Shown here one piece after another: positions 48,901 through 64,000 of a stretch of DNA of 64,000 nucleotides. The position numbers were made by a program, and so were the translations under genes. Below the pieces are notes generated by a model. That model was not told the origin of the DNA. It did not search any database and was given only the letters and a program-made list of their open reading frames with translations. This DNA is from Trileptium ribeirensis. Taxonomy: Eukaryota > Nematoda > Enoplea > Enoplida > Thoracostomopsidae. The first letter of the stretch is position 1. Each line of letters opens with the position of its first letter. Location: positions 49,257 through 113,256 of the forward strand of contig JASANE010030027.1 of the NCBI GenBank assembly GCA_030248225.1, read 5' to 3'.

Positions 48901-51900
48901 ATTTTGTTTCCTGTAACAGGCTGAGTTTGATGAATATACCACCCTAAAACCTCTTGAACTCTGAATCCATTGAAAATCCTAAAATATCGTTGATGCTAAC
49001 CTCATCAAAAACAACTGACAACGAATCAAGTATTTGTGCAGGTCTCTAGATAACCAAACCATCGTATTCCGCCTACAGGAAAACCTATTTAGACAATTCA
49101 TGATGACCTGTACGCAAAACATAACCAAACAACTAGACTAAAATCTTGAAATCGGGTTCATTGACTCTAAATCCATTGGAAATCCATAAAATATGCACGA
49201 TGTGCTCTAGATAACCAAACCATTGTATTCAGAATATTGGAAAACATATATAGACAAATCTTGATTATCTGTACGCAATATGTAACCAAATACCAGAAGA
49301 CAACTATATTCTAATAATCGCGTTCACTGACATTAACCCATGAAACGGTTTGAAATATGCACGCTGGACCAAGATAACCAAAACACTGCATTCAGAAATA
49401 CCTACAAATAGACCATTCCTGATACCCTGCACGCAAAACATAACCAATCTAACGAAGATAGACTACAGTTCGAAAATCAGGTTCGTCGACAGTTAAACCA
49501 TCGAAATCCAATGAAAAGGTATAATATAGTCAAATTAGACAGACTGTAGATAGCAAAGCCAACATATTCAGTGTAATTGATAACCTAATAGGCACCTATT
49601 GTATGGTAAAAACACGCAATAACATGCCGAAAATTGGAAAATCACTATTTCTGGCAAAGAATTGACGAACCATATTCAGCGGCTCAGGGAGTGGTGCAAA
49701 AAAGTCGTGAAGTTGTAGATCTCGATGAGCTGACTCTTCGATGGGAAGCCTGTATCGCAAGATATGGGCTGCGAAACACTGGTACCCGTATGGCCCTTAA
49801 TTAACATGATTTTTGCCATTTTCACTCCGAAGATGGAAGGGCACATCCTCGCCACTTTTGCTATGGAGTAAAAAGTTTACCGAAATCCATCCATCCGAGG
49901 ATAAGATGTGAATGACAGAAACAGAAAAAAAGAAATTTCTCATTTTTCCACTAGCGTCCTCACTGAACACACTGCTCGCTCCGCTCCGTTTCAATAACCA
50001 CAGTAATAACGACTGATGACATATCATAAGCAACTACAGAGACTTTCAATTATGAAATAAAACCAACGAGAGAAATAAATTTGAATGTTAAGATAAAAAT
50101 AACATTGCTTCAATGAAGGGTACAAAAAACCCTCATTTTGACCTCTAACCCCTAACCATGGGGCGTCATACCCCAGTACCCTTGGCACCATGGGTCGCAG
50201 AGCAAAACCAGCAAAGGCAATGAGTTTCCTATGCCCGAAAACCCCCAAGTGAAACTATTCAGCCGCCCAGGACGTCAGAACAACTTTTCTAATTTTGGGA
50301 CGAGGAACCATGAGGGTGCCATACCTCAAACCCCATAACTCCATAACCGGAGCCTTAATCGAAAAACAAAAAAGTGGCATCGGCATTTGTCATTTTACTA
50401 TGAAATAAAACCAACTAGAGAAAAAAATTCGAAAGTTACGCACAAAAATAACCTTGCTTCCGTGAAGAGTACTAAAATGGTGTAAAAAACCTCATTTTGA
50501 CCTCTGACCCCGAACCAAGGGGGCGCCATATCCTTGTATGCATGGGTCGCAGAGTAAAACCAATACCGGCAATGAGCTTCCCATGCCAAAAACCCCCAAG
50601 CGAAACTTTTCAGCCGCCCAGGCCGTCAGAACAAATTTTCTAATTTTGAGAGGAGGAACCATGATGGTGCCATACATCAAACCCGGAGTCTTAATCGAAA
50701 AACAAAAAAGAGGCATCGGCATTTATCATTTTACTATAAAATAAAACCAACCACAGAAAGAAATTCGAATGTTAAGATAAAAATAACCTTGCTTCCGTGA
50801 AGGGTACTAAAAACCCTCTTTTTGACCTCTGACCCCCGACCATGGGGCGTCATACCCACGTAACCATGGGTCGCAGAGCAAAACGGGCACCGGTATTGAG
50901 TTTCCCATGCCCGAAAACCTCCAGGTAAAACTTATCAGCCATCCAAAACGTCAAAACAAATTTTGAAATTTTAGATCGAGGAATTATTCTGGTGCCATAC
51001 CCCCGTACCTCAAACCCCATAAATCCTGAACCGGAACCTTATCGAAAAACAAAAAAGAGGCATCGGCATTTATCATTTTATTATGAAATAAAATCATCCA
51101 GAGAAAAAATTCGATAGTTAAGATAAAAATAACCTTGTTTCCTTGAAGGGTACTAAAATGGGGTCAAAAAACCACATTTTGCCCCCTGACCCCGAAACCA
51201 AACCCCACATCAAAAAACGCTCGGGATGTACAATCAATCGAGGTAAATCGACTATGCCGGTTCGAATGAGCCCAATATCATGAAAATCTGTTAGGGCGTT
51301 CCCGAGTTATGGCCGATCACACACACACAGAATTTAAAAGATTTCAATCCTGCACCACACAATCTCCACTACGTTTCACTACGTTCTGATAACAACTTTT
51401 TACATAGATCTAACTATTTACAGAATCAATAAAGACAAGGTCGCATTAATATCAGACGCACCTAATGGCGTGAAATTGTCCACTTCAATCTCCGGAATCA
51501 GTAGCCCAAGTAGCCATTGAAAATACGGCGAATACGCTAGTTCTGCTCCTTCACGAGGTCCGGGTGTTTGAAAAACGAAAACAATGTCACTGGCCTCGGA
51601 TACGTTTTCAATTTGTCGTGGTCCAGAAGACGTGTCGAGTTTGTAGCAATTTGGCGCTTCAAATGGTCGAATATAGAACCAGTCATGGGGTCGACGTCGC
51701 AGATCGAGGCACTGGGTACCGATATGTGGCATACTTGATGTAGGTGCAGGCGCTAAAACTACAATTAGTACGATAAAACCATATTGTAATTAAAATTATC
51801 AATAATCAAAATTAGAGTAAACGCAATATTTTCCAAGTCATCTTAGTTACAAAAATTTTACCTGAAGCTTGACATAGCGGGCCAAAGCTCGAAATTGGGG

Positions 51901-52397
51901 GAGCTGCAAGTATATGTAGCGATTCCTCCACGTACATCTGGGAACCCCCTTTGTATAGGCAACCATAAAACAGTCAAAAACTATGTACCTTCATGACTGA
52001 ACTCAATATTGTACATATCAAAGAAGGCAAAATGTTAACGATTTTATCCCATCAGGAAAAAATTCCATGTTTGAATTCCATGAAAAACCATGTTTCAAAG
52101 TTTAAGATATTAATTATATACCTTAACCGATGACATAACCAAAATATATCCCCGGATTTCTTTCCTCGGATTTCTTCTTCTTCTTTTCCTATATTTTTCC
52201 TCGGATATGCTAGCCCACATCCCTGACATCAGACTAATTACAACATCCCACTTTTGCACAGGAATATCGACATTTACGCACACTCACTTACCGAATAATC
52301 CACCAACAAGGAAGCAGGCTAACAACGCAAATCCGAGTGCAAAGAATAAAACAAATAGTTTTCCATTACTTAAGTTTTCTACCACTGCGCCAGCCAT
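27925..52397 (-). CDS. wls: Wntless (Wnt sorting receptor), N-terminal 395 residues in ten exons
   Basis: Wntless carries palmitoleoylated Wnts from the Golgi to the cell surface and is recycled by retromer. Ten exons join with matching phases: 52292-52397, 51862-51903, 51462-51752, 46892-47016, 45747-45899, 42766-42902, 41287-41327, 30741-30868, 29575-29672, 27925-27988. The start [10 protein letters not shown] plus a hydrophobic anchor (about residues 14-34, ending FLVGGLF) is the family start. Conserved landmarks follow in order: [36 protein letters not shown] with WFWRR and [20 protein letters not shown] with GEH, HYWK, and [12 protein letters not shown]. No stop or shift is seen, so the gene looks functional. 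The C-terminal membrane segments (about 140 residues) were not found and may lie left of the window. Confidence 0.93.
28740..29110. repeat. Degenerate repeats in wls intron 9
   Basis: Four to five loose copies of a block containing AGGTTAGGT, GTTTTGA-GTTGTCCAAAAA and AACTATTAG occur at about 60-70 bp spacing. They are too diverged to set a firm unit. Confidence 0.55.
29575..29672 (-). CDS. wls: wls exon 9
   Basis: Acceptor TTTTTTAAG; donor AG-GTTGGT. Codes for DFSHYWKRL and a hydrophobic segment ending LIFDLCQR. The donor was chosen over GTATAC four bases later because it alone fits the phase of exon 10. Confidence 0.88.
29989..30110. repeat. Perfect 61-bp tandem duplication, wls intron 8 vicinity
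   Basis: The block starting CATCCAGGAGCCCAGCCCTG occurs twice in direct succession without a difference I can see, so it arose recently. It lies in intron 8, between exons 8 and 9. Confidence 0.95.
30741..30868 (-). CDS. wls: wls exon 8
   Basis: Acceptor TTAATTTTAG; donor GTAATT. Codes for [16 protein letters not shown] and GEHLM. The acceptor and first two thirds of the exon are duplicated just upstream (30895-30986); only the downstream copy gives an open product. Confidence 0.93.
30798..30986. repeat. 97-bp tandem duplication covering wls exon 8 acceptor
   Basis: Two identical 92-bp copies (30798-30889 and 30895-30986) are separated by 5 bases. Each contains the 3-prime splice site and the first 71 bases of exon 8. 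Confidence 0.95.
31000..32419. other. wls intron 7, unique part
   Basis: AT-rich intron between exon 8 and the left target site of LTR element B; nothing recognised. Confidence 0.5.
32424..33419 (-). repeat. 3-prime LTR of element B
   Basis: 996 bp. In element orientation it contains a TATA-like TATTTAAA at about 32645-32652 and, about 45 bases downstream, an intact splice donor-like AGG-GTGAGT (about 32599-32606). Confidence 0.93.
33420..33433 (-). promoter_or_regulatory. Polypurine tract of element B
   Basis: GGCGGAGGGGGTAA on the minus strand directly abuts the TGTA start of the 3-prime LTR, where plus-strand DNA synthesis is primed. Confidence 0.85.
33434..35436. other. Element B interior, 3-prime part, non-coding
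   Basis: No long frame and no retroviral domain was seen on either strand. AT-rich with short TATA/TACA runs near 34800-34860 and 35130-35200. Confidence 0.55.
35437..35685. repeat. Five-hairpin array in element B
   Basis: Five inverted repeats follow at about 54-bp spacing: 35437-35470, 35492-35517, 35543-35570, 35596-35621, 35655-35685. Stem arms are GATCACGCAGGG, ACACAGGG, CACACAGGG (one mismatch), CATACGAG and GACTCACGG, each matched by its complement on the other side. The loop side is similar in all (ACATAAAA, ACATTGCA, ACATTATA, ACTTAAAA, ACATAAAT). The array lies about 2 kb before the 3-prime LTR in element orientation. Confidence 0.9.
35686..38214. other. Element B interior, central part, no pol
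   Basis: Minus frames at 37874-38224, 37187-37468 and 36897-37100 are open but show no reverse transcriptase, RNase H or integrase motif. They may be remains of element-specific proteins or chance frames. Confidence 0.5.
38215..39732 (-). CDS. Gag-like protein with degenerate knuckle and possible protease remnant
   Basis: An ATG-started frame of 505 codons lies 140 bases inside the 5-prime LTR. Residues about 28-195 form a Ty3/Gypsy-type Gag core ([33 protein letters not shown]). Near residue 300 the string [16 protein letters not shown] occupies the place and spacing of a CCHC zinc knuckle, but three of the four ligands are replaced. The C-terminal 150 residues include CIDTQ and NFPDGQ, which may be a decayed aspartic protease (DTG to DTQ); this is inference. 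A hydrophobic run ([16 protein letters not shown]) lies there too. The frame is unbroken despite these losses. No pol follows. Confidence 0.8.
   Translation of the reverse strand: MCTEKTMNFDPNGIGGAGQRQPNIFEAEDIPVYYGNFGDDFEEWIGIFERISFVNQWTKDDMARIQPAFLRSEAARKWESLSGEIMKNYDLLKNCLVEILVPKYLTYSYGAKLRERSQSFYEPVDTYARDVAHLVKKAFPTLSNETRDTIAMENFLCGLNRTIRGFVLTARPESFQAAIAKARRQECIENFIGSIETEPLAQNLKFIGSKSHKNSLNNASVDSTENFACTDIPVVYLKRPNPELCNKRMKPAAPVDTLTCTTTCSTNDMSCTNRNVGSRKGSLTVFRCNSRNKKWNIRTDSQTGFISKSVRGKLMRSLRCKQWRVPRCFDQEQTMVSKVINFTGTHIKSVNGVKQREVLSDIIATKSELTYDASVNLELKQRVVVIRNLKVACIDTQEIAYGFIGSKDLTSTSLELKVFGNGGNFVRVMTVCLMEHSIIVLSATIYGQTIVIMLLCDAFVCVCLFSRCFGSIQGNTVLNFPDGQKCDVMFLQVQQPANQTTMLWS
39872..39885 (-). 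promoter_or_regulatory. tRNA primer-binding site of element B
   Basis: TGGTGCCGCAAGCC on the minus strand, three bases after the 5-prime LTR. TGG pairs with the CCA end of a tRNA. The tRNA was not identified. Confidence 0.75.
39889..40959 (-). repeat. 5-prime LTR of element B
   Basis: 1071 bp. Compared with the other LTR it has a C-rich insertion at about 40238-40265 and short extra segments. The splice donor-like site of the other LTR reads GAGAGT here, so the GT is lost. Confidence 0.93.
41287..41327 (-). CDS. wls: wls exon 7 (41 bp)
   Basis: Acceptor GTTTTCAG; donor GTAAGT. It reads [13 protein letters not shown] between LLEK of exon 6 and PIEWF of exon 8, and its phases (one base in, one base out) fit both neighbours. 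Confidence 0.9.
41593..41909. repeat. 158-bp tandem duplication, wls intron 6
   Basis: The block starting ATTGTGTCGGAGGTAAATG recurs 158 bases later with about 10 percent differences; both copies end in GATAATTCATCACCGGATT. Confidence 0.9.
42766..42902 (-). CDS. wls: wls exon 6 (second membrane segment)
   Basis: Acceptor TGCTTTGCAG; donor GTACGT. Codes for [12 protein letters not shown], then a hydrophobic segment ending WFWRR, then PILLEK. Confidence 0.93.
42960..45740. other. wls intron 5
   Basis: AT-rich intron. The frame 44036-44368 is open but without any recognisable domain. Nothing else was seen. Confidence 0.5.
45747..45899 (-). CDS. wls: wls exon 5
   Basis: Acceptor GATTGTTTAG; donor GTTGGT. 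51 codons include [12 protein letters not shown] and LLINIRLP, the strongly conserved end of the luminal domain. Confidence 0.9.
46064..46093. other. Short perfect hairpin in wls intron 4
   Basis: GCGGGGGG and CCCCCCGC form an 8-bp all-GC stem around a 14-base loop, in an AT-rich intron. Confidence 0.8.
46892..47016 (-). CDS. wls: wls exon 4
   Basis: Acceptor TTTTTCAG; donor GTACGT. 125 bases code for the family segment with [10 protein letters not shown] and AWKEIVH, ending in phase 0. Confidence 0.88.
47355..47440 (+). repeat. Possible tRNA-derived SINE head
   Basis: GTAGGTTCAAAACC matches a tRNA B box, and CGTGATAACCACTC upstream loosely resembles an A box. No acceptor stem is seen. The call is weak. 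Confidence 0.25.
47660..48220 (+). repeat. 60-bp minisatellite with open 186-codon frame, wls intron 3
   Basis: Units of 60 bp read [20 protein letters not shown] in the plus frame; an interspersed segment reading STLIRFSSL occurs three times, giving a higher-order pattern. An ATG-started frame spans the block (47660-48220) antisense to wls. No promoter, splice or domain evidence supports a protein, and a period of 20 codons keeps frames open by itself. Confidence 0.9.
48930..49600. repeat. Degenerate tandem repeat, period about 180 bp, wls intron 3
   Basis: Three to four loose copies share GATAACCAAACCATNGTATTC, GTACGCAA-ATNTAACCAA and AAATCCATTGGAAATCC in the same order. Copies are much diverged. 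Confidence 0.7.
50046..51260. repeat. 345-bp tandem array, 3.5 copies, wls intron 3
   Basis: TATGAAATAAAACCAAC-type starts occur at 50050, 50398, 50734 and 51080 (spacings 348, 336, 346). Each unit contains CATGGGTCGCAGAGCAAAAC, CAGCCGCCCAGGACGTCAGA and AAAAAGAGGCATCGGCATTT. The last unit breaks off and is followed by CCGAGTTATGGCCGATCACA and a short CA run at about 51320. Confidence 0.92.
51462..51752 (-). CDS. wls: wls exon 3 (luminal domain)
   Basis: Acceptor TTGTAGTTTTAG; donor G-GTGCGT at 51461. Contains [13 protein letters not shown] and [10 protein letters not shown]. The frame stays open to 51418 past the donor, but phase and alignment to the family place the exon end at 51462. Confidence 0.9.
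51862..51903 (-). CDS. wls: wls exon 2 (42 bp)
   Basis: Acceptor ACTTGCAG, donor CAG-GTAAAA. It codes for a Pro/Ser-rich stretch ([13 protein letters not shown]) between the anchor and the luminal domain. Confidence 0.85.
52292..52397 (-). CDS. wls: wls exon 1 (start and membrane anchor)
   Basis: ATG at 52397; 35 codons plus one base; donor GTAAGT. A possible 3-prime splice site (TTACTTTTAG ending at 52409) lies just before the ATG, so a 5-prime untranslated intron is likely. An out-of-frame ATG occurs 5 bases upstream. Confidence 0.9.
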
Positions 52398-52622
52398 CGC
52401 ATATATTTCTAAAAGTAACATAAATTTTTGTAGGTTACATTGGCGGCAGGTGCTGATCTCCCGGTTTATGGCAATAACAGCTACTGCTGCAAAAAAGCAC
52501 AGGGGTACCAGTTCTGATTCTAATATTGCTTATCTTCCAGGCATGCTCATACCATGTATTTTAGATACACTGACGCCAGGGAATAACCGGCACCAGCAAC
52601 CGCAACCGTCCATTTAAACCGG
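52398..52622 (-). promoter_or_regulatory. Presumed wls 5-prime flank
   Basis: The 225 bases between the wls ATG and the tandem array should hold the 5-prime untranslated region or its last intron. The TTACTTTTAG next to the ATG looks like a splice acceptor. No TATA box was identified. Confidence 0.35.
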
Positions 52623-54535
52623 ATCAGTTTTTATTCCACACATATATACATGGCTGCATAGAGACATGGACACATAAAAAGATTAACAGAACACTTAAAA
52701 CGTGCCTTAGCGGTCTGGTGCCCTTTGCCTTCTTGCCAATGCAAAGCTTGCATATTCAACTCTCGTCGGAACCTTTTTGTGTTTCAGCAGTTTTTATTCC
52801 ACACATATATACATGGCTGCATAGAGACATGGACACATAAAAAGATTAACAGAACACTTAAAACGTGTCTTAGCGGTCTGGTGCCCTTTGCCTTCTTGCC
52901 AATGCAAAGCTTGCATATTGAACTCTCGTCGGAACCTTTTTGTGTTTTAGCAGTTTTTATTCCACACATATATACATGGCTGCATAGAGACATGGACACA
53001 TAAAAAGATTTACAGAACACTTAAAACTTGTCTTAGCGGTCTAGTGCCCTTTGCCTTCTTGCCAATGCAAAGCTTGCATATTGAACTCTCGTCGAAACCT
53101 TTTTGTGTTTTAGCAGTTTTTAATTCCACACATGTATACATGCAAGAGAAGACACAAACAACACAAAACCCCCCCCCCCCACAACCAAACCCCCACAGAC
53201 CACACAAAATGCTGCATAGAGACATGGACACATAAAAAGATTTACAGAACACTTAAAACGTGTCTTAGCGGTCCCCCCCCCCCTAGTGCCCTTTGCCTTC
53301 TTGCCAATGCAAAGCTTGCATATTCAACTCTCGTCGGAACCTTTTTGTGTTTCAGCAGTTTTTATTCACCCTTCCAATCAAACCATAAACCTAACCTTTT
53401 ATTCACACGTATATACATGGCTGCATAGAGACATGGACACATAAAAAGATTTACAGAACACTTAAAACTTGTCTTAGCGGTCTAGTGCCCTTTGCCTTCT
53501 TGCCAATGCAAAGCTTGCATATTGAACTCTCGTCGAAACCTTTTTGTGTTTTAGCAGTTTTTAATTCCACAAATGTATACATGGCTGCATAGAGACATGG
53601 ACACATAAAAAGATTTACAGAACACTTAAAACGTGTCTTAGCGGTCTAGTGCCCTTTGCCTTCTTGCCAATGCAAAGCTTGCATATTGAACTCTCGTCGG
53701 AACCTTTTTGTGTTTTAGCAGTTTTTATTCCACACATATATACATGGCTGCATAGAGACATGGACACATAAAAAGATTAACAGAACACTTAAAACGTGCC
53801 TTAGCGGTCTGGTGCCCTTTGCCTTCTTGCCAATGCAAAGCTTGCATATTCAACTCTCGTCCCCACCCCCACAACCAAGAACGAAACCTTTTTGTGTTTT
53901 AGCAGTTTTTATTCCACACATATATACATGGCTGCATAGAGACATGGACACATAAAAAGATTTACAGAACACTTAAAACTTGTCTGAGCGGTCTAGTGCC
54001 CTTTGCCTTCTTGCCAATGCAAAGCTTGCATATTGAACTCTCGTCGGAACCTTTTTGTGTTTTAGCAATTTTTATTCCACACATATATACATGGCTGCAT
54101 AGAGACATGGACACATAAAAACATTTACAGAACACTTAAAACGTGTCTTAGCGGTCTAGTGCCCTTTGCCTTCTTGCCAATGCAAAGCTTGCATATTGAA
54201 CTCTCGTCGGAACCTTTTTGTGTTTCAGCAGTTTTTATTCCACACATATATACATGGCTGCATAGAGACATGGACACATAAAAAGATTAACAGAACACTT
54301 AAAACGTGTCTTAGCGGTCTAGTGCCCTTTGCCTTCTTGCCAATGCAAAGCTTGCATATTCAACTCTCGTCGGAACCTTTTTGTGTTTCAGCAGTTTTTA
54401 TTCCACACATATATACATGGCTGCATAGAGACATGGACACATAAAAAGATTAACAGAACACTTAAAACGTGTCTTAGCGGTCTGGTGCCCTTTGCCTTCT
54501 TGCCAATGCAAAGCTTGCATATTCAACTCTCGTAT
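52623..54535. repeat. 163-bp tandem array, about eleven copies
   Basis: CAGTTTTTATTCCACACATA-type starts recur at 52625, 52788, 52951, 53117, 53360, 53547, 53719, 53904, 54067, 54231 and 54393. Units differ by only a few bases. Four insertions with C-runs or C-rich text (about 53137-53212, 53271, 53368-53402, 53861-53882) lengthen some units. The period is 1 mod 3, so the recurring frames here are by-products. The array ends where element C starts. Confidence 0.95.
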
Positions 54536-54536
54536 A

Positions 54537-55174
54537 TGTAGTGTAAATCAACCCTGCCTTGTGCAGGCAAGACAATTAAATATGTTGTAACTGTTATTGC
54601 AAAATTCTGTGAATATTAATGTGTTGGAGTTTCTTAAAATTCGTGACATTTCAGTAGTTATAAATGTTTAGTCTAGGAGGTTGCCAGAGCGGCACTGACA
54701 TTATACTATGACATTTTCTTATTGTTGTATCGTGGGTATTTAAGTGCTATGAATCTTGATTAAACGAGTTTTAGTGTTGAAAACCAGCTGGGAAACCAGT
54801 TGTATTATTAGCGTGGCTTCATCGTTGTACCATTATTCATCGTTTCGTTTAGCTGCCTGAGCAAGACAAGCGCCATTGTTTAATATTTACTGCTTGGAAC
54901 GCCAGAAACTTTGGCTTACCAGCTTGCCCGGAAACGGCTCGCTGTACCTGCCTGCAGAAGGCAGCAAGATTAGCGAATTGCATACGTGCCTGAACAAGGC
55001 GGGTTGACAAACGCGTGCCCGAGCAGGGCTCACAGTCGTTGCCTGAATAAGGCAGCACTGCCTGAAGAAGGCAGTATATCACGATTGCGGATTGCTTGTC
55101 TAGACAGTGATTGCCGACCAGGATTGTAGCAATTATACCTAGTTTACACTTCGCGAACCCTGTGCAACGTTACA
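54537..55174 (+). repeat. 5-prime LTR of element C
   Basis: The start TGTAGTG follows the array directly and the end GTTACA is followed after one base by the primer-binding site. A TATA-like GTATTTAAG lies at about 54735-54745. The second half holds a hairpin array. The second LTR lies outside the window, so the left end rests on the TG motif and on the end of the array. Confidence 0.8.
54854..55073 (+). repeat. Seven-hairpin array in the LTR of element C
   Basis: Seven 15-base elements follow the pattern TGCCTGANNAAGGCA at 54854, 54925, 54949, 54987, 55016, 55040 and 55059. Most have a 4-6 bp stem GCCT/AGGC. The copy at 55016 reads TGCCCGAGCAGGGCT, where both sides of the stem changed together. 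Confidence 0.85.
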
Positions 55175-55175
55175 T

Positions 55176-55191
55176 TGGTGGCAACGGAGGG
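55176..55191 (+). promoter_or_regulatory. tRNA primer-binding site of element C
   Basis: TGGTGGCAACGGAGGG follows the LTR end after one base; TGG pairs with a tRNA CCA end. The tRNA is not identified. Confidence 0.8.
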
Positions 55192-55253
55192 ATTCAGCCG
55201 CCACAGAATCCCGCGTCGCACTAGATTATCGGTACCCTGTGTAAGCTTTCACC

Positions 55254-56700
55254 GTGTCTGAACGACAGCGTTTATCTTCCGACGCTAGCCAAGCACGCGA
55301 TCAACGAGAAAGACAACGTGTGTTAGATCGTGTAGAGTTACAGTTGACCGCATTCCAAACAGCGGTCACTAAGCAACTGGGAGAAATTACCCGGGCTTTG
55401 ACGGACCAACAGTCCGGAGTTGTAAGACTCGACACGACACAGCAGAAGTACATTGTGTCTACTGCCACACAGCTCGACGCAATCCGCGAGGCGATAATCA
55501 ATCAACAAAAATCTACACGCTCCACAAATTGCCCCTCCACAACGGAACTTCGCGCTATTTTTTCGCCAAATTTTCAAACACTGAGAGAAGGTCTAGAACA
55601 GAACGGTGTGGCAATATCGAATCTCGCGACTATCATAAAAGACACACAAACCACATCGTCCCCCACATCGACAGTACCTAAGCAACTGGTTCACTATAAA
55701 ATACATCGAGAGTGTCATAAAGGAGACATTGCGTCGAAGGAAGACTACGAAGATATGAGCCAGCGTGGGCCAAATATCTCGATCACCCCATTTAGCGGTG
55801 ATAAAAGCGAAGATTTTCAAAGCTGGAGAAGCAATGAATTTGAGATAAAATTTCAAGCTAATGGTTGGCCAGAGGATAACAAAGCGGCGTTGCTGGGAGT
55901 ACATTTGACCGGACATGCCAAGTTTTTATTCAACGGTCTGAGCGCAGCTGACAAACAAAACTACAGCCTGTTAGTCTCTCGCCTAGATCAGGAATTGATG
56001 ACTGAAGACAGAAGGCGATTTCTAAGCGACCGCTATGATATACGCGTTCAAAATGAAGGTGAAACTGTTAGCCAGTATGCTCAGGCGCTCACTGAACTAG
56101 CACACTCTGCTCTCAGTTACATGACGGTCGATGCCGAAAAACAGACGAACCTACGAAATAAGTTTATCGCTGGTTTGAAGCCTAGAATTCGCGAAGAAGT
56201 GAAGGTCATGGGACCCAATACTATGGCTGAAGCGATTTTGTGCGCAGAAAGAGTAGAAACCAAATTTACAGCTGAAAAGAATTGCACAGGGTCGGGAACC
56301 GCAAACTCGCTTCAGTGGTGCGCCGATGGCAGGTTGCAGGATAATACCCGTACAGATGACGCAATCCGAGAATTAGTGGAGCGCCTTGACAGATGGGAAC
56401 GCAATCAGATGATTAATGCACTATCGACTGCCTCGGGTACACCTGAACCAAGTGTGCGGCAACGGCAAGAAAGTAGACCAAACAATTATCCAGGGAATAG
56501 TGGGTCTGTTATGTATGGACGGCAGCGGTTTACCTTGACAAACCGTCCTATTTGTCAAATATGTTCGAAATCGGGCCACACGGCTCTGAACTGCGCCAAT
56601 ATTCCTCGACAGCAGTTGTCACAGCGAGATTTCTGTGAATATCATCGGTTATATGGTCATCGCACGCAGGATTGTCGCGCACGGGGTCGTGACAGCGGTG
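55254..56700 (+). other. Gag region of element C
   Basis: A helical, Gln-rich N-terminus is followed by a retrotransposon Gag core (PFSGDKSEDFQSWRSNEFEI, YDIRVQNEGETVSQYAQAL, KFIAGLKPRIREEV). A CCHC knuckle is CQICSKSGHTALNC at residues 434-447. A second, CX2HX4HX4C, is CEYHRLYGHRTQDC at about 462-475. Gag forms the particle and binds RNA. Confidence 0.92.
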
Positions 56701-59700
56701 GTCGGCCAAGTCGTTTTACTGATAATCGTAGCCGAACTTTTGACAACCGCAGGGGACCCGTAACTTCAGTAAAGCATATTGTGTCAACTAATGCTGTAAA
56801 GCAGGATTGGCAGGTTGAACCAGCTATTACGTCATTCCTGGGCACTGTTGTATGCAAACCCGTCGATGCCAAGTGGAGACGCGTGACCAATTTCGGTACT
56901 GGAATATCGAATCCCAGTCATGATACCGGAGGAATTTCTTCAGATGCAATTCAGTGTCCTGGTGCAGACAGCAACTCGACTGATCCTGGCGGACCTCCAG
57001 CACAAGCAGCATTGCCAATTACTGGCAGGACTTCAGGAATCTCTGAGGCCCAACATGCGCAAGGAAGGCAACGCAATTACAACGACTGCGCTCAACCTGT
57101 TTGTATAAAGACGGTTAAAAGTGGTTCCGACGATCGTGGTAAAACAACATTTCTCTTTATCGGTGACGAGCAACTACAAAAAATGCCTGATACTGAGGGT
57201 AGTCGCATTTGTATTAAACGGGGATTGACCATGCGGGAAGTAGATGAAATGTTGGAGCTGCAGTTGGACAGTAGAAAAAATGAATCAAACTCGGCTGTAA
57301 CAGTTGTTATTCACTGTGGTTCCAACGACCTGGCCAACATGGTGCAATTGGATGCTGCGATGTTGCCTGATACTGAGCAAATTGATCGTACAATCAGAAT
57401 GGCAGTTAGGCGCATTGCAAGTGTTATTCAGTATACATCCCGGCGGGTCGAGGCAGTATACTGGTCTAATGTTACCGATCGTCGTGATGTCCCCCAACAA
57501 ACTTTAAGCTATTTTCGTGATCGCTTGAAGGTTTATGTTCGAGCACTTGGTGCAACAGCAACCAGGTATTGCGTGTTGGAGAACGATAATTTGTTCGACG
57601 GTGAATTTTCAATTCGTGACATATCATCACTCTCGCCGTTCTTGTCCGATTATGGCATGTTCAAGCTTGCCCATTGTTTTTCGTACAGGATTCCCCGATT
57701 TGCTACTGACCTCATGGAACGGCTTTCTGATGGTCGACCTGTCAATGGCCTTATCACGTCAACAGCAATTTCTACCGTGTTTAGGCAGCGAATACTTTTA
57801 AGCAACGATTATCCTGATTTTACCGAACAACCTGAATCACAACAAAACCCAGGTGACTCGTTCCCTCGACCAATGACGTTGGCGCAAACGAGAGCAGAAC
57901 AGTTCATGCTTGCAGATCGCTCGACGAGGGAGATACAAGGTGATAGGGCAGAGCGGTTCGAACGACAAAGGCAGTGGGCACAAGCTGACCGAGACTACAT
58001 AATACGGTCAAGAGCCACAGCGAAACAAGCTATACTACCAGCTGTAACTCGGAATTCGGGAAATAAAGGGCGCTTGTTAGCCGTTTTGGAACGATTAGAG
58101 TCGTCCAGATTGGAGGCACCAAAAGAGGTTCCAACCACGTCCGGATGTAATCCTGCGTCTTTAAATGTGGGTAAAACCTCATTAACCGAAGATAGCATAC
58201 AGAAGACTAAACTTTTACACAGGCGACGACGATCTGCCTCGGTGAGAGATGACCGAAGAACCAGTACTGAAAGAAACGGTACTACATATCCGAATTTAGC
58301 AATATTTCGAAGACGATCAGTACCCTCAGCACTGCTTCTGCTTTTCGCGATACTATATGTACTGTCGGTAGGGTCGTCAAGTACAGTAATCCGTACCAAC
58401 CCTCTTCTCTGTCAGAAGCAACAGCATAAGCAAACGTGGCGTATACCCGATATTCCTACTTGCGACGGTCATGCCTCTAATAGCTCGGAGATGCCAGTTG
58501 ATGTAATCCTACAACTATATCGTCGAAATATAATCCAATACGTTAGCGATGCGTGGCTATGCTCGAAGTCAACAGGAAAAGTTGAAACGTTCACGTACTT
58601 TTTCAACGACGAAAATTTAAAGCGATCAAGTACTTCTGACGGCCAAGTCTCCCTAAATGAATGTCAGCGGATGCGCGACTTGAAGGAATGTTCGGCAGGT
58701 GCCCTGACACAGCAAGGAAATTTGTGGACTACCACAAATAAATTAGATTGGTTTTATCCAGGAGGTGGAATCCATTGTTGCCATTGGAAAGCTTTTGAAG
58801 CGACAAATTGTGTTCTGTCTGCGTCTAAGGTATATAAGAGACATGATTCCACTACTATGGAATCCACAGCTGGTGATGTAGCCCACTGCGCCTATGACGG
58901 AGGGTCGTGTACGCTGTCCCGCGGTCGAGTTCTGTTGTGGACTCCTAACATGACAGAAAAATGTGAGTTTATAAAGTGGCGCAGAATATCTGGCTCGATG
59001 CGAGGCACACAGTGGGTCTCTTCGGATGGCACTTTAGCGCTGACGTATAAGGGAAGTAAAATACGAGCTGACTGTGATGGATTGCAAATTCAGTTATCCG
59101 ATCAGGGAATTCCATTTCGGGTGATTTGGCGAAAACATGAAAGCTCGGATTTCAAAGCAAACCGTTTGCTAAAGACGCTGATGCAACTGCCAGGTAGCCG
59201 TCGTCGTAGGTCCCGACGCGAAACGACCGATGCGTCTTTGGGAGTTGTAACACCAGAGCTTTTGGCATCTAGCCTGCAAGCGCTTGAAATTTACGCTTCT
59301 CGATCAATTTCATTCGCCTATGACCATGCCATAGCTTCAACATGTAATTTGATGCGGCAAATGGGACAAATGATACGGGAATTTACGACTGCGAATCCCA
59401 CGCTGGCAATGCGTGCGTGGCTAAAACATTCAAATTTGATAGCATCAGCAGCTGGCGATTTTATCGAGGTTTGGCCATGTTTCGAAATCAGTGACGGGGA
59501 TTTTCATTTTTTACCAATGAATACGACATGTACAACCGGACTGCCGATATCCTTATGGATAGGAAACGAAACTAAGACGGGTTACTTCAATTCGCAAACA
59601 AATATCGTCACTCAATTCACGACAGAAACAGATTGTGCTCTTGAAAACGAAGTTCCGCTGACGCTGCGTAATGGATCATATTTTTACAAAACTACGGGTC

Positions 59701-62700
59701 TACTATACCCTATAAATAACTATAAGGTGCTTGATGTGTACAACGGGCTATCTGTAATTAATGCGACACGACTGCCTGATATTATTTTCCATCCAATCGT
59801 TATGTACCGTCTGAACGAGCTAAGAGGCCGAATTACAATGAACGACGTATTCCGGGCGTACGATCAACAAAGAAAGATATTAAATATGCTCGGTGTACCT
59901 TCGGAAGAACCAGCAACGAAAGAAGTAGCCACAAAGACAGCCACGGCTATAGTACAAACCGGACTGTTCAGTTTTCTATTTGGATTTCGTGTCGATTTTC
60001 AACAACTCTGGATATTTCTGTGTTGCTTGTGGGTAACGATTACTTGTTTTTGGAAGCTAGTTGGACGTTGGATAAGGAACAGTTTTGCAGATATAAGTCA
60101 AATGGATTCCTTGCGGTGGAAATTTTTATCATCCGCTAAGCGTCAGAATATTGAAGTTGGAAATATTGTCACGTCTGATACCGGTATCGAGTCTATGGCG
60201 GGAGTAACACCACCGATGGTTCTCGTAACAGAAGGCACCAATTCGACTGTCATTCACGAAACTCAGTCAATACCCAACGAATCAGTACAGGCCCGTAGTT
60301 TTCAACCTTACAGACTTAATTCCCTAACGGCATCTCAAGGTGAACCAGGTACTATCAACATAATGCTTAATGGTAATTTGGTCGAGGTTCTTTTGGACAC
60401 AGGAGCTCAAATTTCGCTGGTCAACGCTGATGTAGCTCAAGCTGTAGGACTAGCGGTAGAGATGCTGAAACCGTTTTTCATCAAGCACGGAACTGTGCGT
60501 TCAGCCTCCGGACATATGATGACCATCAATGGTTATGTTGTCGCCACAGTGCAGCTTGGAACTCGTAAATATGAAGGACCGCTTGCGGTGTCTTCAAAGC
60601 TACCGTACAACGCGATTTTGGGACGTGATTTTTTGTCACAGTTGGGTCCCTTTCAACTAGATTATTCTACAAATTTGATGAAAGTCGGCAACGACAACAT
60701 TGCCATACATAAGCAGAAGGTACAAATTCCATCAGCATCATACGTGACACTGTTGGATACGGTCTGTATACCGCCTATGACAGAAATTGTGTTATGCGGC
60801 AAATCAAATACAGGAAGCAAAGAACCCCGTCTGATTGAACCATGGAAAGATAACGCTGCTAATGTGAACATTGCGTTAGCCCCTACGATAGTGAAACCTA
60901 ATAATGACATGGTGGTACCGGTACGACTTCTAAATCCAGGGAGTTCTCCAGTGACCGTCTACAAAGAAACGAAAGTCGGTATAGAAACTAATCTAGAACC
61001 AGATCAAATCTGTGATGTTGATACGCAGGTATGGGCATCAGACAAAGTACTTAATGCGGTTACACTCGCTATGTCAAAGACAACTACTTTAGATACTAAC
61101 TTTTTACAACATCTTGACCTATCTGAATCGGCACTAAGTGGAGCAAACCTGGAAGAACTAAAGACACTCCTGTTGGAATATAAAGACATATTTGCAACAA
61201 GTGACGCTGACTTGGGAACGGCCAAAGGCGTTTATCACACAATTGATACCGGTGACGCCGCACCTGTCAGACAAAAACCGTACCGTACACCGTTCGCTAC
61301 GCGAGAATACGTGTCTCTGAAGATAAAAGAAATGCTCGGAAACAGGATTATCGAACCTTCCACAAGCGAGTGGGCGTCTCCGATTGTACTCGCGAAGAAA
61401 AAAGATGGGTCATGGAGGTTTTGCGTTGACTACAGAAAACTCAATGCGGTAACGCGACGGGATAGCTACCCGATGAAACGAATAGACGACGTGATGGGTT
61501 CGTTAAACAAGGCAAAATTATTTTGTACACTGGACATGAAAAGCGGTTACCACCAGATCCCAATGGATCCGGATAGCCAACACAAGACAGCGTTTATAAC
61601 TTACGAAGGTCTGTATGAGTTCCGTAAGTTACCGTTCGGATTGTCCAATGCTCCTGCTACTTTTCAGCGACTAATGGAAAGTATACTTGCAGGCCTTGAT
61701 TGGAAGATTTGTCTTGTTTACCTGGACGACATCCTCGTGATAGGGTCAACACCAGAAGAATTGCTGCAACGGTTACGTATGGTATTCGACAGGTTGAGAA
61801 TTGCTGATCTTAAACTTACGCTTAAGAAGTGTCAATTTGGACAAACGCATGTTCCATTTCTGGGGCACATATTGTCGAGCGATGGATATTTTCCAGAATG
61901 CACAAAGGTAGATAAAATTATTAATTGGCCTGTGCCCAAAAACGGAAAAGAAGTTCAGCGATTTATGGGTTTGGCGTCGTACTATAGACAATTTATATGG
62001 TGTTTTTCAAAAATAGCTGCACCTCTTCACTCATTATATGCTAAGTCAACAAAGTTTAAATGGACTGAGGAGTGCCAGAAGGCATTCGATGAATTAAAAA
62101 GACGACTGTCAAGTAAACCGGTGTTGGCGTTTCCCGATTTTTCGAAACCTTTCGTGTTGCAAACCGATGCCAGTGATATCGCAATTGGGGCCGTGCTAAG
62201 CCAGCTGGATGAGAATATGAAAGACCATCCGGTGTCGTACGCAAGCCGTATGCTAACGAAGGCGGAAAGGCGTTATCCGGTGATTGAACGGGAAACGTTG
62301 GCTGTTGTTTGGGCAATCCGGCACTACCAACCGTATTTATATGGGCGTCCATTCTCGGTTGTCACAGACCACCAGCCATTAAAATGGCTGCTAACAGTAA
62401 AGGATCCACATGGTCGTTTGTGTCGTTGGAGCTTGATGTTACAGGCATACGATGTGACAATAGTTCATAAATCGGGAAAGGAAAACAAAAACGCAGACGC
62501 GTTGTCACGACGGTCAGAAACCGAAGGGACTCCAGTCGCTAATGGAGAAGTATGTCAAACGTGTACCGATATCTTGAGACAAGCGAAACAGAATGACAGT
62601 ATGGTATCGGCCATTACGGATTTGGTGGCAAATGGTGATTCAGTCAACGAACAGATAGAAATGTGGTCGAGGGCACAAAGGGGAGACAACATGATATCGG

Positions 62701-63023
62701 ACATGATACGACAGCTGGAGGCTGGAGAAGAAGTAAAAGATACTACAATGTGCGTTAAAAACGGACTTCTATATCGTAAGAGCACTGTCCGTGGGCAGCT
62801 GCAGTGCTACACACCACTTGAGTTGCGTGAGCAGGTAATGAACGCTAGCCATGATCATCTTTTTGGCGGTCATCTTGGTATTCGGAAGACGTTTCGGAAG
62901 ATTTCGGAGCGGTACTATTGGCCAACAATGAATGCGGATACTAAGAAATGGTGTTTCAATTGTGAAGCGTGCGCTACGCGGAAAAATCCGCAAAGATGGA
63001 CAAAACCCCTCTACATCCAATAG
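55254..63023 (+). CDS. Gag-SGNH-Env-Pro-RT-RNase H-IN polyprotein, single frame
   Basis: One open frame of 2589 codons. Order by residue: coiled coil about 1-75, Gag core 175-345, two zinc knuckles 434-475, SGNH-like domain 630-828, charged linker, hydrophobic leader about 1022-1042, envelope-like ectodomain to about 1584, membrane anchor 1585-1604, aspartic protease (DTGA at 1715), reverse transcriptase (YLDD at 2156-2159), RNase H (Asp 2305) and the integrase zinc-binding part (His 2533, 2540). The first in-frame start is GTG at 55254, preceded by ACC and a stop at 55242; the first ATG is at 55755 and would remove the coiled coil. The frame ends in a stop at 63021 where integrase should go on. 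It may be a defective copy or hold a sequence error. Confidence 0.9.
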   Translation: MSERQRLSSDASQARDQRERQRVLDRVELQLTAFQTAVTKQLGEITRALTDQQSGVVRLDTTQQKYIVSTATQLDAIREAIINQQKSTRSTNCPSTTELRAIFSPNFQTLREGLEQNGVAISNLATIIKDTQTTSSPTSTVPKQLVHYKIHRECHKGDIASKEDYEDMSQRGPNISITPFSGDKSEDFQSWRSNEFEIKFQANGWPEDNKAALLGVHLTGHAKFLFNGLSAADKQNYSLLVSRLDQELMTEDRRRFLSDRYDIRVQNEGETVSQYAQALTELAHSALSYMTVDAEKQTNLRNKFIAGLKPRIREEVKVMGPNTMAEAILCAERVETKFTAEKNCTGSGTANSLQWCADGRLQDNTRTDDAIRELVERLDRWERNQMINALSTASGTPEPSVRQRQESRPNNYPGNSGSVMYGRQRFTLTNRPICQICSKSGHTALNCANIPRQQLSQRDFCEYHRLYGHRTQDCRARGRDSGGRPSRFTDNRSRTFDNRRGPVTSVKHIVSTNAVKQDWQVEPAITSFLGTVVCKPVDAKWRRVTNFGTGISNPSHDTGGISSDAIQCPGADSNSTDPGGPPAQAALPITGRTSGISEAQHAQGRQRNYNDCAQPVCIKTVKSGSDDRGKTTFLFIGDEQLQKMPDTEGSRICIKRGLTMREVDEMLELQLDSRKNESNSAVTVVIHCGSNDLANMVQLDAAMLPDTEQIDRTIRMAVRRIASVIQYTSRRVEAVYWSNVTDRRDVPQQTLSYFRDRLKVYVRALGATATRYCVLENDNLFDGEFSIRDISSLSPFLSDYGMFKLAHCFSYRIPRFATDLMERLSDGRPVNGLITSTAISTVFRQRILLSNDYPDFTEQPESQQNPGDSFPRPMTLAQTRAEQFMLADRSTREIQGDRAERFERQRQWAQADRDYIIRSRATAKQAILPAVTRNSGNKGRLLAVLERLESSRLEAPKEVPTTSGCNPASLNVGKTSLTEDSIQKTKLLHRRRRSASVRDDRRTSTERNGTTYPNLAIFRRRSVPSALLLLFAILYVLSVGSSSTVIRTNPLLCQKQQHKQTWRIPDIPTCDGHASNSSEMPVDVILQLYRRNIIQYVSDAWLCSKSTGKVETFTYFFNDENLKRSSTSDGQVSLNECQRMRDLKECSAGALTQQGNLWTTTNKLDWFYPGGGIHCCHWKAFEATNCVLSASKVYKRHDSTTMESTAGDVAHCAYDGGSCTLSRGRVLLWTPNMTEKCEFIKWRRISGSMRGTQWVSSDGTLALTYKGSKIRADCDGLQIQLSDQGIPFRVIWRKHESSDFKANRLLKTLMQLPGSRRRRSRRETTDASLGVVTPELLASSLQALEIYASRSISFAYDHAIASTCNLMRQMGQMIREFTTANPTLAMRAWLKHSNLIASAAGDFIEVWPCFEISDGDFHFLPMNTTCTTGLPISLWIGNETKTGYFNSQTNIVTQFTTETDCALENEVPLTLRNGSYFYKTTGLLYPINNYKVLDVYNGLSVINATRLPDIIFHPIVMYRLNELRGRITMNDVFRAYDQQRKILNMLGVPSEEPATKEVATKTATAIVQTGLFSFLFGFRVDFQQLWIFLCCLWVTITCFWKLVGRWIRNSFADISQMDSLRWKFLSSAKRQNIEVGNIVTSDTGIESMAGVTPPMVLVTEGTNSTVIHETQSIPNESVQARSFQPYRLNSLTASQGEPGTINIMLNGNLVEVLLDTGAQISLVNADVAQAVGLAVEMLKPFFIKHGTVRSASGHMMTINGYVVATVQLGTRKYEGPLAVSSKLPYNAILGRDFLSQLGPFQLDYSTNLMKVGNDNIAIHKQKVQIPSASYVTLLDTVCIPPMTEIVLCGKSNTGSKEPRLIEPWKDNAANVNIALAPTIVKPNNDMVVPVRLLNPGSSPVTVYKETKVGIETNLEPDQICDVDTQVWASDKVLNAVTLAMSKTTTLDTNFLQHLDLSESALSGANLEELKTLLLEYKDIFATSDADLGTAKGVYHTIDTGDAAPVRQKPYRTPFATREYVSLKIKEMLGNRIIEPSTSEWASPIVLAKKKDGSWRFCVDYRKLNAVTRRDSYPMKRIDDVMGSLNKAKLFCTLDMKSGYHQIPMDPDSQHKTAFITYEGLYEFRKLPFGLSNAPATFQRLMESILAGLDWKICLVYLDDILVIGSTPEELLQRLRMVFDRLRIADLKLTLKKCQFGQTHVPFLGHILSSDGYFPECTKVDKIINWPVPKNGKEVQRFMGLASYYRQFIWCFSKIAAPLHSLYAKSTKFKWTEECQKAFDELKRRLSSKPVLAFPDFSKPFVLQTDASDIAIGAVLSQLDENMKDHPVSYASRMLTKAERRYPVIERETLAVVWAIRHYQPYLYGRPFSVVTDHQPLKWLLTVKDPHGRLCRWSLMLQAYDVTIVHKSGKENKNADALSRRSETEGTPVANGEVCQTCTDILRQAKQNDSMVSAITDLVANGDSVNEQIEMWSRAQRGDNMISDMIRQLEAGEEVKDTTMCVKNGLLYRKSTVRGQLQCYTPLELREQVMNASHDHLFGGHLGIRKTFRKISERYYWPTMNADTKKWCFNCEACATRKNPQRWTKPLYIQ
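57141..57735 (+). other. SGNH-hydrolase-like domain without nucleophile
   Basis: Block I of the SGNH/GDSL fold reads FLFIGDEQL (Asp 638, Glu 639), where active enzymes have GDS. Block III reads HCGSNDL (Gly 689, Asn 691), as in active enzymes. The last block reads LSDYGMFKLA (Asp 799), where active enzymes have a DG-x-H type motif; the His seems replaced. I infer a folded but non-catalytic SGNH domain. SGNH domains are known in some LINE elements; I know of no standard Ty3/Gypsy element with one between Gag and Env. Confidence 0.65.
58320..60075 (+). other. Envelope-like glycoprotein domain
   Basis: A hydrophobic leader after a basic stretch (about residues 1022-1042) is followed by a Cys-rich ectodomain with several N-glycosylation sites (NSS, NMT, NTT, NET, NGS, NAT). 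A multibasic furin-type site (four Arg, Ser, two Arg; residues 1316-1322) splits it into surface and membrane subunits. A membrane anchor lies at 1585-1604. This layout is that of viral fusion glycoproteins. The cysteine pattern suggested mononegavirus or jingchuvirus-type glycoproteins to me, but this is not established. A captured envelope in an old or defective copy. Confidence 0.75.
60345..60665 (+). other. Aspartic protease of element C
   Basis: VLLDTGAQISLVN carries the catalytic DTG (Asp 1715), and AILGRDFL marks the end of the retropepsin fold about 85 residues on. Confidence 0.93.
61270..61865 (+). other. Reverse transcriptase of element C
   Basis: Motifs in order: FCVDYRKLN, FCTLDMKSGYHQIPM, KLPFGLSNAPATFQRLM and VYLDDILV (Tyr 2156 to Asp 2159). 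All catalytic Asp residues are present. The type is Ty3/Gypsy. Confidence 0.97.
62140..62500 (+). other. RNase H of element C
   Basis: LQTDASDIAIGAVLSQ, ERETLAVVWAI, and VTDHQPLKWL give the acidic residues of a Ty3/Gypsy RNase H. ENKNADALSRR follows at the C-terminal end, as usual. Confidence 0.95.
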
Positions 63024-63830
63024 AAGTCGTATCACCATGGTACCAGGTGGCCTGCGACATAGTCGGACCGTTACCATGTACGAAATCCGGTAACAAATAC
63101 GTGGTTGTATTCATGGACTTTTTCACAAAATGGGTAGAATGCATCCCTACACCTGACACAAAGTCGATTACCATCGCCAAAATTTTTGTAGAACAAATTG
63201 TATGCCGTTTCGTGTTCCAGTGCGTTTTCTGATATTTTAGGTTTAGTTGTTCTCAGTCCAGCGGATAACTCTTAGTTTTGGTTTAAAATAACACGACAGC
63301 GTATCATCCTGCATGCGACGGTATGGTCGAGAGGTTTAATCGCACCACCTAAACAATGGTCAGTCTGTACGTTAACACGAATCAAGAAGAGAATTCCTAC
63401 GATAATCTTCCGTACGTTTCTTTTGCGTACCGAAGCAGTGTGCATGAGTCAACCCTAGTATTATTATATGAACTTCGGATCCCCATCCCGTTTAACCCAG
63501 ACAACTTGATGAACGTTACGAAAACGTTGGCGATGTTGGTGATTATGTTTTTTATCTAAATGAGAAGCCGACTACAGCTTGGGAAACAGCTCGGAGTTCT
63601 TATCGCCAGAGAGCGCAATATGCACAAGAAGCAACACGATAAGAAAACCCGGCCATTACCTTTTTTGGAAGGCGATCGAGTGTACCTTCATGTTCCGGTA
63701 GTTCAAGGAAAATCCAAGAAATTGGCAAAACATTGGAGAGGTCCGTATCGAATACTTAAAAATAACAGACGACGGACCGGAGCGCTAGTCGAGCCTGTGG
63801 CTAAAACTACTCGCACAAGATGAAAATTAG
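62760..63830 (+). pseudogene. Integrase of element C, broken
   Basis: The HHCC zinc-binding part is intact in the main frame (His 2533 and 2540, CFNCEAC). A frameshift near 62990-63020 puts the next part (VACDIVGPLP, first catalytic Asp) in the frame 62969-63232. That frame ends before the second Asp; the stretch 63200-63330 no longer reads the expected motif. The region with the catalytic Glu (GMVERFNR) is in yet another frame at about 63310-63350 and is followed by a stop. The C-terminal part with HWRGPYRIL lies in 63560-63823. At least three breaks make it non-functional. Confidence 0.88.
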
Positions 63831-64000
63831 TTAATGTTAGGCGCCTTAAACGTGCCCCCGTAGACCTAAACGTAGCTGATGCATATTATTTCAAAATATA
63901 GATGACTGTGACATTCATGGGAATGTACGAGGAGCGGCTGTGGAAACTCTAGAAGGTAGTGAATCTGCGCCAGGCGCAGCTTTAAACAAATCCAATATCC
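63831..64000 (+). other. End of integrase region, 3-prime LTR not reached
   Basis: One frame reads VNVRRLKRAP, typical of the Ty3/Gypsy integrase tail, to a stop near 63900. No LTR start matching 54537 is seen before the window ends. Confidence 0.6.

What the first reader, a model, noticed from the sequence alone, without database searches (positions are those of the whole stretch)
55254..63023. Envelope-like gene lies between gag and pro inside one 2589-codon frame
Seen: a single open frame with Gag, SGNH-like domain, envelope-like glycoprotein, protease, reverse transcriptase, RNase H and part of integrase. Established: envelope genes of Ty3/Gypsy, Bel/Pao and retroviruses normally lie downstream of pol and are made from a spliced RNA. 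Inference: this lineage makes its envelope from the same polyprotein or by internal splicing, which would need an unusual way to reach the secretory pathway. An uninterrupted frame over all domains in a partly decayed copy suggests the order is original and not a chance rearrangement.
Basis: partly seen in the sequence, partly recalled or inferred. Interest (0 to 1): 0.88.

Follow-up and report, generated by a model that had tools for sequence, protein, structure and literature searches.

The report
Retroelement with envelope inside its polyprotein
An animal genome carries a partly decayed virus-like jumping gene whose membrane-envelope protein appears to be coded in the middle of one long polyprotein instead of at the end, which would need an unusual way of making and placing its proteins if other copies share the layout.

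Summary
Window 55245-63023 (+) is one stop-free frame of 2592 codons (log10 P of no stop about -59). It codes for capsid (weak match), two zinc knuckles, a weak SGNH-like domain, an envelope-like glycoprotein, protease, RT, RNase H and the integrase zinc domain. The envelope part matches Monjiviricetes_fusion at E 1.7e-6, just under Pfam's cut-off. It has a furin-like site and the frame's only two strongly hydrophobic segments: signal-like at 58314-58394, anchor at 60006-60065. Integrase is broken after 63023. New here: no ATG for 1 kb of leader up to an in-frame ATG at 55755, so the likely product is a 2422-residue polyprotein. In control gypsy-type elements zinc knuckle and protease lie 55-94 residues apart (5 measurable of 34); here 1252. 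My preferred model is a membrane-threaded polyprotein, Gag and Pol cytosolic, Env lumenal; a spliced Env-Pol mRNA is the main rival. The host genome could not be searched and no close relative was found, so one copy carries the claim. New variant of a known kind.

The parts
54537..55174 (+). candidate 5' LTR (TG...CA, by eye; no second LTR in the window to confirm), with TATAAA at 54659, TATTTAA at 54737 and ATTAAA at 54575 and 54759
   Evidence: sequence read by eye; motifs located; no other copy in the window
55176..55187 (+). primer-binding-site-like stretch TGGTGGCAACGG just after the candidate LTR
   Evidence: the role is inferred from position, and no tRNA match was tested
54753..55754 (+). 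ATG-free leader; 1006 nt between ATGs at 54749 and 55755, the longest ATG-free run on either strand of the window
   Evidence: 0 ATG against 13.8 expected, 0 of 1500 Markov-1 shuffles reached zero
55245..55754 (+). in-frame open extension of 170 codons upstream of the first ATG; possible non-AUG-initiated N-terminal extension of Gag
   Evidence: no coding signal in the first 100 codons, present from 55545
55755..56750 (+). Gag: capsid-like domain and two zinc knuckles (56553, 56634)
   Evidence: Retrotrans_gag E 0.0028, Ty3_capsid 0.003; knuckle pattern
57120..57749 (+). SGNH/GDSL-like domain, weak; by eye the GDS serine is replaced (GDE), so probably not catalytic
   Evidence: Lipase_GDSL_2 E 0.026; sequence; single-sequence fold not informative
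57689..57714 (+). best-scoring 3' splice site of the element (first exon base 57689), followed by an in-frame ATG at 57714
   Evidence: score 6.86, 4th of 3148 AG sites on the + strand; 58416 (6.52) and 54567 (6.18) score nearly as high; weights recalled, not trained
58314..58394 (+). signal-like hydrophobic segment preceded by RRR
58380..59198 (+). envelope surface-like part, 273 aa, 12 Cys, 2 sequons; no Pfam match
59199..59225 (+). furin-like basic site (RRRRSRR)
   Evidence: cleavage not tested
59226..60005 (+). envelope membrane part with Monjiviricetes_fusion match, 260 aa, 4 Cys, 4 sequons
   Evidence: PF24664 E 1.7e-6, 2.6e-6 and 1.3e-5 in three cuts
60006..60065 (+). second hydrophobic segment, transmembrane anchor, followed by a basic stretch
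60330..60740 (+). aspartic protease, LLDTGA at 60390
   Evidence: gag-asp_proteas E 1.5e-11
61395..62480 (+). reverse transcriptase and RNase H, Ty3/gypsy type
   Evidence: RVT_1 1.6e-34, RT_RNaseH 4.6e-43; best PDB match 4ol8 (the next, 7q5b, is named Transposon Ty3-G) E 4.3e-91
62700..63023 (+). integrase zinc domain; the frame ends at 63023
   Evidence: Integrase_H2C2 5.1e-22
62966..63823 (+). decayed remainder of integrase in other frames: core piece 62966-63232 and C-terminal piece 63560-63823 with a GPY motif by eye
   Evidence: rve E 1.8e-4; SH3_Tf2-1 E 9.5e-4; both under cut-off; the piece 63353-63556 has no integrase match

Best explanation
This is one partly decayed copy of a Ty3/gypsy-type endogenous retrovirus-like element. 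Its glycoprotein, probably captured and of chuvirus/bornavirus type, sits between Gag (with an SGNH-like add-on) and protease in one frame. Most likely mechanism: ribosomes scan an AUG-free leader, start at 55755 and make one polyprotein. Gag and the SGNH-like part stay in the cytosol. The internal hydrophobic segment at 58314-58394, preceded by arginines, acts as a signal-anchor and sends the Env ectodomain into the ER lumen, where furin can cut at 59199. The second segment at 60006-60065 anchors Env and returns the chain to the cytosol, so protease, RT, RNase H and integrase start out as the cytoplasmic tail of Env and are cut free by the element's own protease. This resembles the threading of a flavivirus polyprotein (recalled). 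Shown: domain order, one frame, ATG-free leader, exactly two segments over the hydrophobicity threshold, basic residues on the predicted cytosolic sides. Inferred: initiation at 55755, membrane threading, all cleavages. Extra Gag would have to come from another mRNA or from selective turnover; this is not shown.
For: Open frame of 2592 codons, log10 P -59. The ATG-free run of 1006 nt is the longest on either strand of 64 kb and ends exactly at an in-frame ATG in front of the capsid domain. Only two segments exceed the hydrophobicity threshold in 2592 residues, one at each end of the envelope. Over 20 residues the charges are +4/-1 before the first and +3/-2 after the second. Envelope identity: PF24664 E 1.7e-6 plus BDV_G, furin-like site, 19 Cys and 6 sequons in 590 residues. 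The nearest in-frame ATG before the signal segment is 57906, 136 codons upstream, as expected if Env is not started on its own. No stop lies between Env and protease. GC3 is even.
Against: One copy only. The Pfam envelope match is just under the curated cut-off and covers about 112 residues; the first half of the envelope has no match. Equal amounts of Gag, Env and Pol would be unusual for a retroelement. The best splice acceptor of the element lies upstream of Env, which favours a spliced product. Basic residues also lie on the predicted lumenal side of the first segment (+3/0), so its orientation is not clear-cut. With codon weights trained on pol, the ORF frame is the best of six in only 3 of the 6 windows of 300 nt that cover env. 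A second TATA-like site at 54659 would put the ATGs at 54708 and 54749 into the leader. The single-sequence structure prediction failed (pLDDT 33.7).
Confidence: 0.5

Rival explanations
1. Same element, but Env comes from a spliced mRNA: a donor in the leader or gag joins the acceptor at 57689, translation starts at the in-frame ATG at 57714, and the product is Env with Pol still attached, because no stop lies between them.
For: 57689 is the 4th best of 3148 acceptor-like AG sites on the + strand of the window and the best in the element; the next ATG, 25 nt on, is in frame. Drosophila errantiviruses splice Env from exons upstream of gag or from within gag (PMC12992720, passages); Cer1 makes CERV by splicing out of an otherwise single frame (PMC10309623, passages); BARE makes a spliced Gag mRNA from one ORF (PMC3735527, abstract).
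Against: No good donor in 54537-56900: the best scores 2.7 and ranks 36th of 3403 GT sites. Two other acceptors in the element score nearly as high, 58416 (6.52, inside Env) and 54567 (6.18), so one high score proves little. The weights were recalled, not trained for this host. 200 residues would still precede the signal segment.
Confidence: 0.28
2. Chimeric single copy: a glycoprotein gene was joined into a gag-pol element by recombination here, and the order is not that of a living lineage.
For: Only one copy was seen. Published work reports chuvirus-type glycoprotein remains flanked by gypsy or Bel-Pao pieces in several insect groups without clear capture by gypsy elements (PMC10084718, passages).
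Against: 7.8 kb without a stop or frameshift across all joins; even GC3; both hydrophobic segments and the furin-like site present; no repeat pair at the joins in the scan of 48000-64000 for repeats of 40 nt or longer.
Confidence: 0.13
3. The SGNH-like and envelope region is an in-frame retained intron: splicing it out gives ordinary Gag-Pol, retaining it gives Gag-Env-Pol.
For: An acceptor of moderate score (4.9) lies at 60314, just before protease.
Against: No donor between the zinc knuckles and the SGNH-like domain is among the top five listed for its stretch; no RNA evidence.
Confidence: 0.06
4. The envelope call is wrong: the middle region is a gag/pol spacer with chance hydrophobic segments.
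For: PF24664 is just below its cut-off; no PDB sequence match.
Against: E 1.7e-6 with a second virus G family at the same place, plus signal-like segment, furin-like site and anchor in the right order. None of the 10 control regions that I chose for scanning, of 35 loci, matches PF24664 at E 0.05.
Confidence: 0.03

Closest known systems
Anakin, Bel/Pao element with a chuvirus glycoprotein, mosquitoes (PMC7642597, passages)
   Same: LTR element that captured a chuvirus-type glycoprotein
   Different: Anakin is Bel/Pao. The passages seen do not state where its glycoprotein lies; for Roo, Tas and Cer-7 they place the envelope-like protein downstream of the polyprotein. Here RT is Ty3/gypsy type and the glycoprotein precedes protease.
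Errantiviruses / envelope-carrying gypsy elements (PMC12992720, PMC13172572 and PMC12859917, passages)
   Same: Ty3/gypsy pol plus an envelope with signal peptide, furin site and TM; said to be widespread in metazoans, some mosquito gypsy elements having type III fusion glycoproteins
   Different: Env is made from a spliced mRNA and lies after pol in the layout described; here it is between gag and pro. The key survey (Chary and Hayashi 2025, eLife) is not held, so its elements could not be compared.
Bdelloid rotifer Vesta/Juno/TelKA elements (PMC5408684, abstract and part 1 of 2 of the Results)
   Same: LTR elements with captured GDSL/SGNH or envelope-like genes; GDSL derivatives without catalytic residues exist in Athena-L
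   Different: The extra genes are ORF3 downstream of pol, and the text seen assigns GDSL and the canonical envelope to different clades
Cer1 of C. elegans (PMC10309623, passages)
   Same: Gypsy/Ty3 element whose extra protein is made by splicing and shares the frame of the polyprotein in most exons
   Different: The extra part lies after pol and does not resemble retroviral Env
Troyka LTR elements (PMC12440569, parts 1 and 2 of 5)
   Same: Gag-Pol in one frame in animals
   Different: [quoted passage not shown] here both are present

Membership tests
Ty3/gypsy (Metaviridae) | pol order protease-RT-RNase H-integrase | tested here: met
Ty3/gypsy (Metaviridae) | RT closest to Ty3/gypsy RT | tested here: met
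   two best PDB matches are 4ol8 (E 4.3e-91) and 7q5b, Transposon Ty3-G (1.4e-90); the next is 1.6e-52; no tree was built
[quoted passage not shown]
   GPY seen by eye in the 63560-63823 piece
Ty3/gypsy (Metaviridae) | LTRs at both ends | tested here: inconclusive
   5' candidate only; the window ends before a 3' LTR
Errantivirus-like envelope-carrying gypsy element | envelope downstream of pol | tested here: not met
   an envelope-like part lies before protease; what lies beyond 64000 is unseen
Errantivirus-like envelope-carrying gypsy element | spliced env mRNA | not testable with these tools
   no RNA; an acceptor candidate only
Monjiviricetes-type fusion glycoprotein | profile match | tested here: inconclusive
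   E 1.7e-6, 26.7 bits against a cut-off of 27.0
Monjiviricetes-type fusion glycoprotein | fusion-protein fold | tested here: inconclusive
   single-sequence model pLDDT 33.7, not usable
SGNH hydrolase | profile match and fold | tested here: inconclusive
   E 0.026, well under cut-off; model pLDDT 44.8, pTM 0.36, no clear fold match
SGNH hydrolase | catalytic Ser of the GDS motif | tested here: not met
   GDE by eye, without an alignment; motif as described in PMC5408684

The most novel reading that the evidence does not exclude
A lineage of Ty3/gypsy retroviruses with genome order gag-(SGNH)-env-pro-pol whose whole protein set is a single membrane-threaded polyprotein, flavivirus-style, so that reverse transcriptase and integrase are carried into the particle on the cytoplasmic tail of the envelope.
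Probability: 0.3. Interest if true: 0.88.

Novelty: new variant of a known kind. Interest (0 to 1): 0.66.

Why it matters
In the retroviruses and errantiviruses described in the passages read here, env comes from a separate spliced RNA and, in the retroviral layout, is the last gene. That keeps Env on the secretory route and Pol in the cytosol (my inference). An element with Env inside the polyprotein would show a second solution and would mean that capture of a glycoprotein need not happen at the 3' end. It would also be a Ty3/gypsy case of capture of a chuvirus-type glycoprotein, which a 2023 survey said it had not clearly found (PMC10084718, passages). The claim is easy to test once other copies can be searched.

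Tried and rejected
Other copies in the window: none; only a distant decayed gag at 38215-39789 on the minus strand (capsid 27% over 160 residues, E 6.7e-8).

Relatives: five viral-contig scans, with envelope and RT queries and three RT/integrase patterns, found none. The genome contigs pattern scan gave 35 loci, all titled as bacterial or archaeal records, used here as control gypsy-type elements (I infer eukaryotic contamination; the pattern is exact, so they are a biased sample). L009 was dropped because no piece matched. Of the remaining 34, 8 have a zinc knuckle in the RT frame, with 258-460 residues from the last knuckle to RT against 1587 here; 5 of these also have the protease motif. 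L024 and L031 come from one MAG and may not be independent. 26 of 34 say nothing on the knuckle distance because gag is in another frame, missing or cut off. Counting overlapping stretches as one, 0 of 34 have two hydrophobic segments before RT in the RT frame and 4 of 34 have one. In L004 a separate upstream ORF has two hydrophobic segments but no Pfam match.

Structure: the envelope model (pLDDT 33.7) and the SGNH-region model (pLDDT 44.8) are too poor; fold searches with the latter gave no clear match and no SGNH hydrolase is among the 50 rows listed by either.

PDB sequence searches with envelope, capsid and SGNH-like pieces found nothing. NCBIfam gave only protease matches under their cut-offs and matches at E 0.01 or worse to unrelated families.

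Literature: no title or abstract start on an envelope between gag and pro in the listings. Listings are capped; of the 11 papers only PMC10309623 was opened. Only open-licence papers are held, and the most relevant survey (eLife 108449) is not. One search (bornavirus G) gave nothing that I opened.
Full report
What is there. Window 55245-63023 (+) is open from stop to stop, 2592 codons. With the region's own dinucleotide make-up about 132 stops would be expected, and the longest open run in 30 simulated 64-kb sequences was 264 codons. Scanned in pieces, the frame gives, in order, a Ty3-type capsid (weak), zinc knuckles at 56553 and 56634, a weak SGNH/GDSL-like region, an envelope-like region, aspartic protease, RT, RNase H and the integrase zinc domain. 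Integrase core and C-terminal pieces follow in other frames up to 63823, so integrase is broken in this copy. The RT is closest in the PDB to Ty3.

The envelope. The stretch 58314-60065 has a hydrophobic segment after three arginines, a 273-residue part with 12 cysteines, a basic furin-like site at 59199, a 260-residue part with 4 cysteines and a second hydrophobic segment. The second part matches Pfam Monjiviricetes_fusion in three cuts at E 1.7e-6, 2.6e-6 and 1.3e-5, with the bornavirus G family at the same place. The score is just below the curated cut-off (26.7 against 27.0 bits), so I call it envelope-like and probably of this type. The first part matches nothing. No other segment of the 2592 residues passes the hydrophobicity threshold (Kyte-Doolittle mean above 1.6 over 19 residues).

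How translation may start. Between ATGs at 54749 and 55755 there is none in any frame: 1006 nt, the longest such run on either strand of the window, against 13.8 expected and 0 of 1500 shuffles. TATTTAA at 54737 and ATTAAA at 54759 suggest that the RNA starts soon after; a second TATA-like site at 54659 would allow a longer leader holding the ATGs at 54708 and 54749, which open frames of 11 and 4 codons. With the first start, a scanning ribosome would first meet the in-frame ATG at 55755, in front of the capsid (inference). The 170 codons upstream are open, and their lack of ATG is only mildly unusual if they are coding (P 0.006 and 0.017 in two synonymous shuffles). Codon signal appears from 55545 but not in the first 100 codons. 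A non-AUG extension, as in murine leukaemia virus glyco-Gag (recalled), is possible.

How Env may be made. The nearest in-frame ATG before the signal segment is 57906. No stop separates Env from protease. Either one polyprotein threads the membrane twice, or an mRNA spliced to 57689 starts at 57714; in both cases Env carries Pol behind it unless cut or spliced off. The best donor-like site just after Env scores 3.1, at 60340, 25th of 3403 in the window. For the splice model: 57689 is the best acceptor of the element and 4th of 3148 in the window. Against it: 58416 and 54567 score nearly as high and no good donor lies in the leader or gag. The weights were recalled. A retained-intron model finds a moderate acceptor at 60314 but no donor. 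Codon signal, with weights trained on pol, is weaker in env than in pol: the ORF frame is the best of six in 3 of 6 windows covering env.

Controls. A degenerate RT pattern scanned over genome contigs gave 35 loci in records titled as prokaryotes; 34 match this RT at 37-52% identity. In 8 of 34 the last zinc knuckle and RT share a frame, 258-460 residues apart, against 1587 here; in 5 of 34 knuckle and protease motif lie 55-94 apart, against 1252 here. None of 34 has two separate hydrophobic segments before RT in that frame, 4 have one. Of 10 upstream regions that I chose for Pfam, 0 match PF24664 at E 0.05. These controls are not close relatives, so they show what is ordinary for such elements and not what this lineage does.

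The SGNH-like region. The match is weak (E 0.026) and by eye the serine of the GDS motif is replaced. If real it is likely a binding fold; [quoted passage not shown] The fold prediction did not help.

Comparison with print. Anakin is a Bel/Pao element with a chuvirus glycoprotein (PMC7642597, passages). A 2023 survey found no clear capture of such glycoproteins by gypsy elements (PMC10084718, passages). A 2026 paper speaks of type III fusion glycoproteins in some mosquito gypsy elements (PMC13172572, passages), so capture by gypsy elements as such may not be new. Insect errantiviruses splice env (PMC12992720, passages). Bdelloid elements carry GDSL or envelope genes after pol (PMC5408684, abstract and part 1 of 2 of the Results). 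The listings showed no report of an envelope between gag and pro, but most listed papers were not opened and the main survey of envelope-carrying gypsy elements is not held.

Limits. One copy; no host genome search, no homologue search in the protein database, no RNA, no second LTR. The order in this copy is firm (about 0.9, my estimate). That it is the order of a lineage is likely but untested. The mechanism is inference.

Noticed in passing
52629-54533: Array of about 11 full or partial copies of a 163-bp tandem repeat that ends within a few bases of the candidate 5' LTR start at 54537; the element may have inserted into a satellite array.
   Followed up: partly
55245-55754: In-frame, ATG-free 170-codon extension upstream of the first ATG, possibly a Gag extension started at a non-AUG codon.
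   Followed up: partly
38215-39789: Minus-strand ORF of 524 aa whose start resembles this capsid (27% over 160 residues, E 6.7e-8): a second, decayed gag with no Pfam match at E 0.1.
   Followed up: partly
22410-26857: Minus-strand ORFs with a hAT C-terminal dimerisation region (E 5.9e-18, 22413-23423) and a BED finger (E 2.6e-4, 25970-26857), probably remains of a hAT transposon.
   Followed up: no
30480-30965: Minus-strand piece matching Wntless (Pfam E 2.8e-9; Protein wntless homolog in the PDB E 1.9e-12): I infer that the host is an animal.
   Followed up: partly
47660-48245: 30/60-bp tandem repeats (from 48000, where the scan began) in a 186-aa open frame; by eye one frame reads as repeated DLTEKDEKC-like units.
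   Followed up: no
50051-51204: Up to four copies of a repeat with about 325-360 bp spacing.
   Followed up: no
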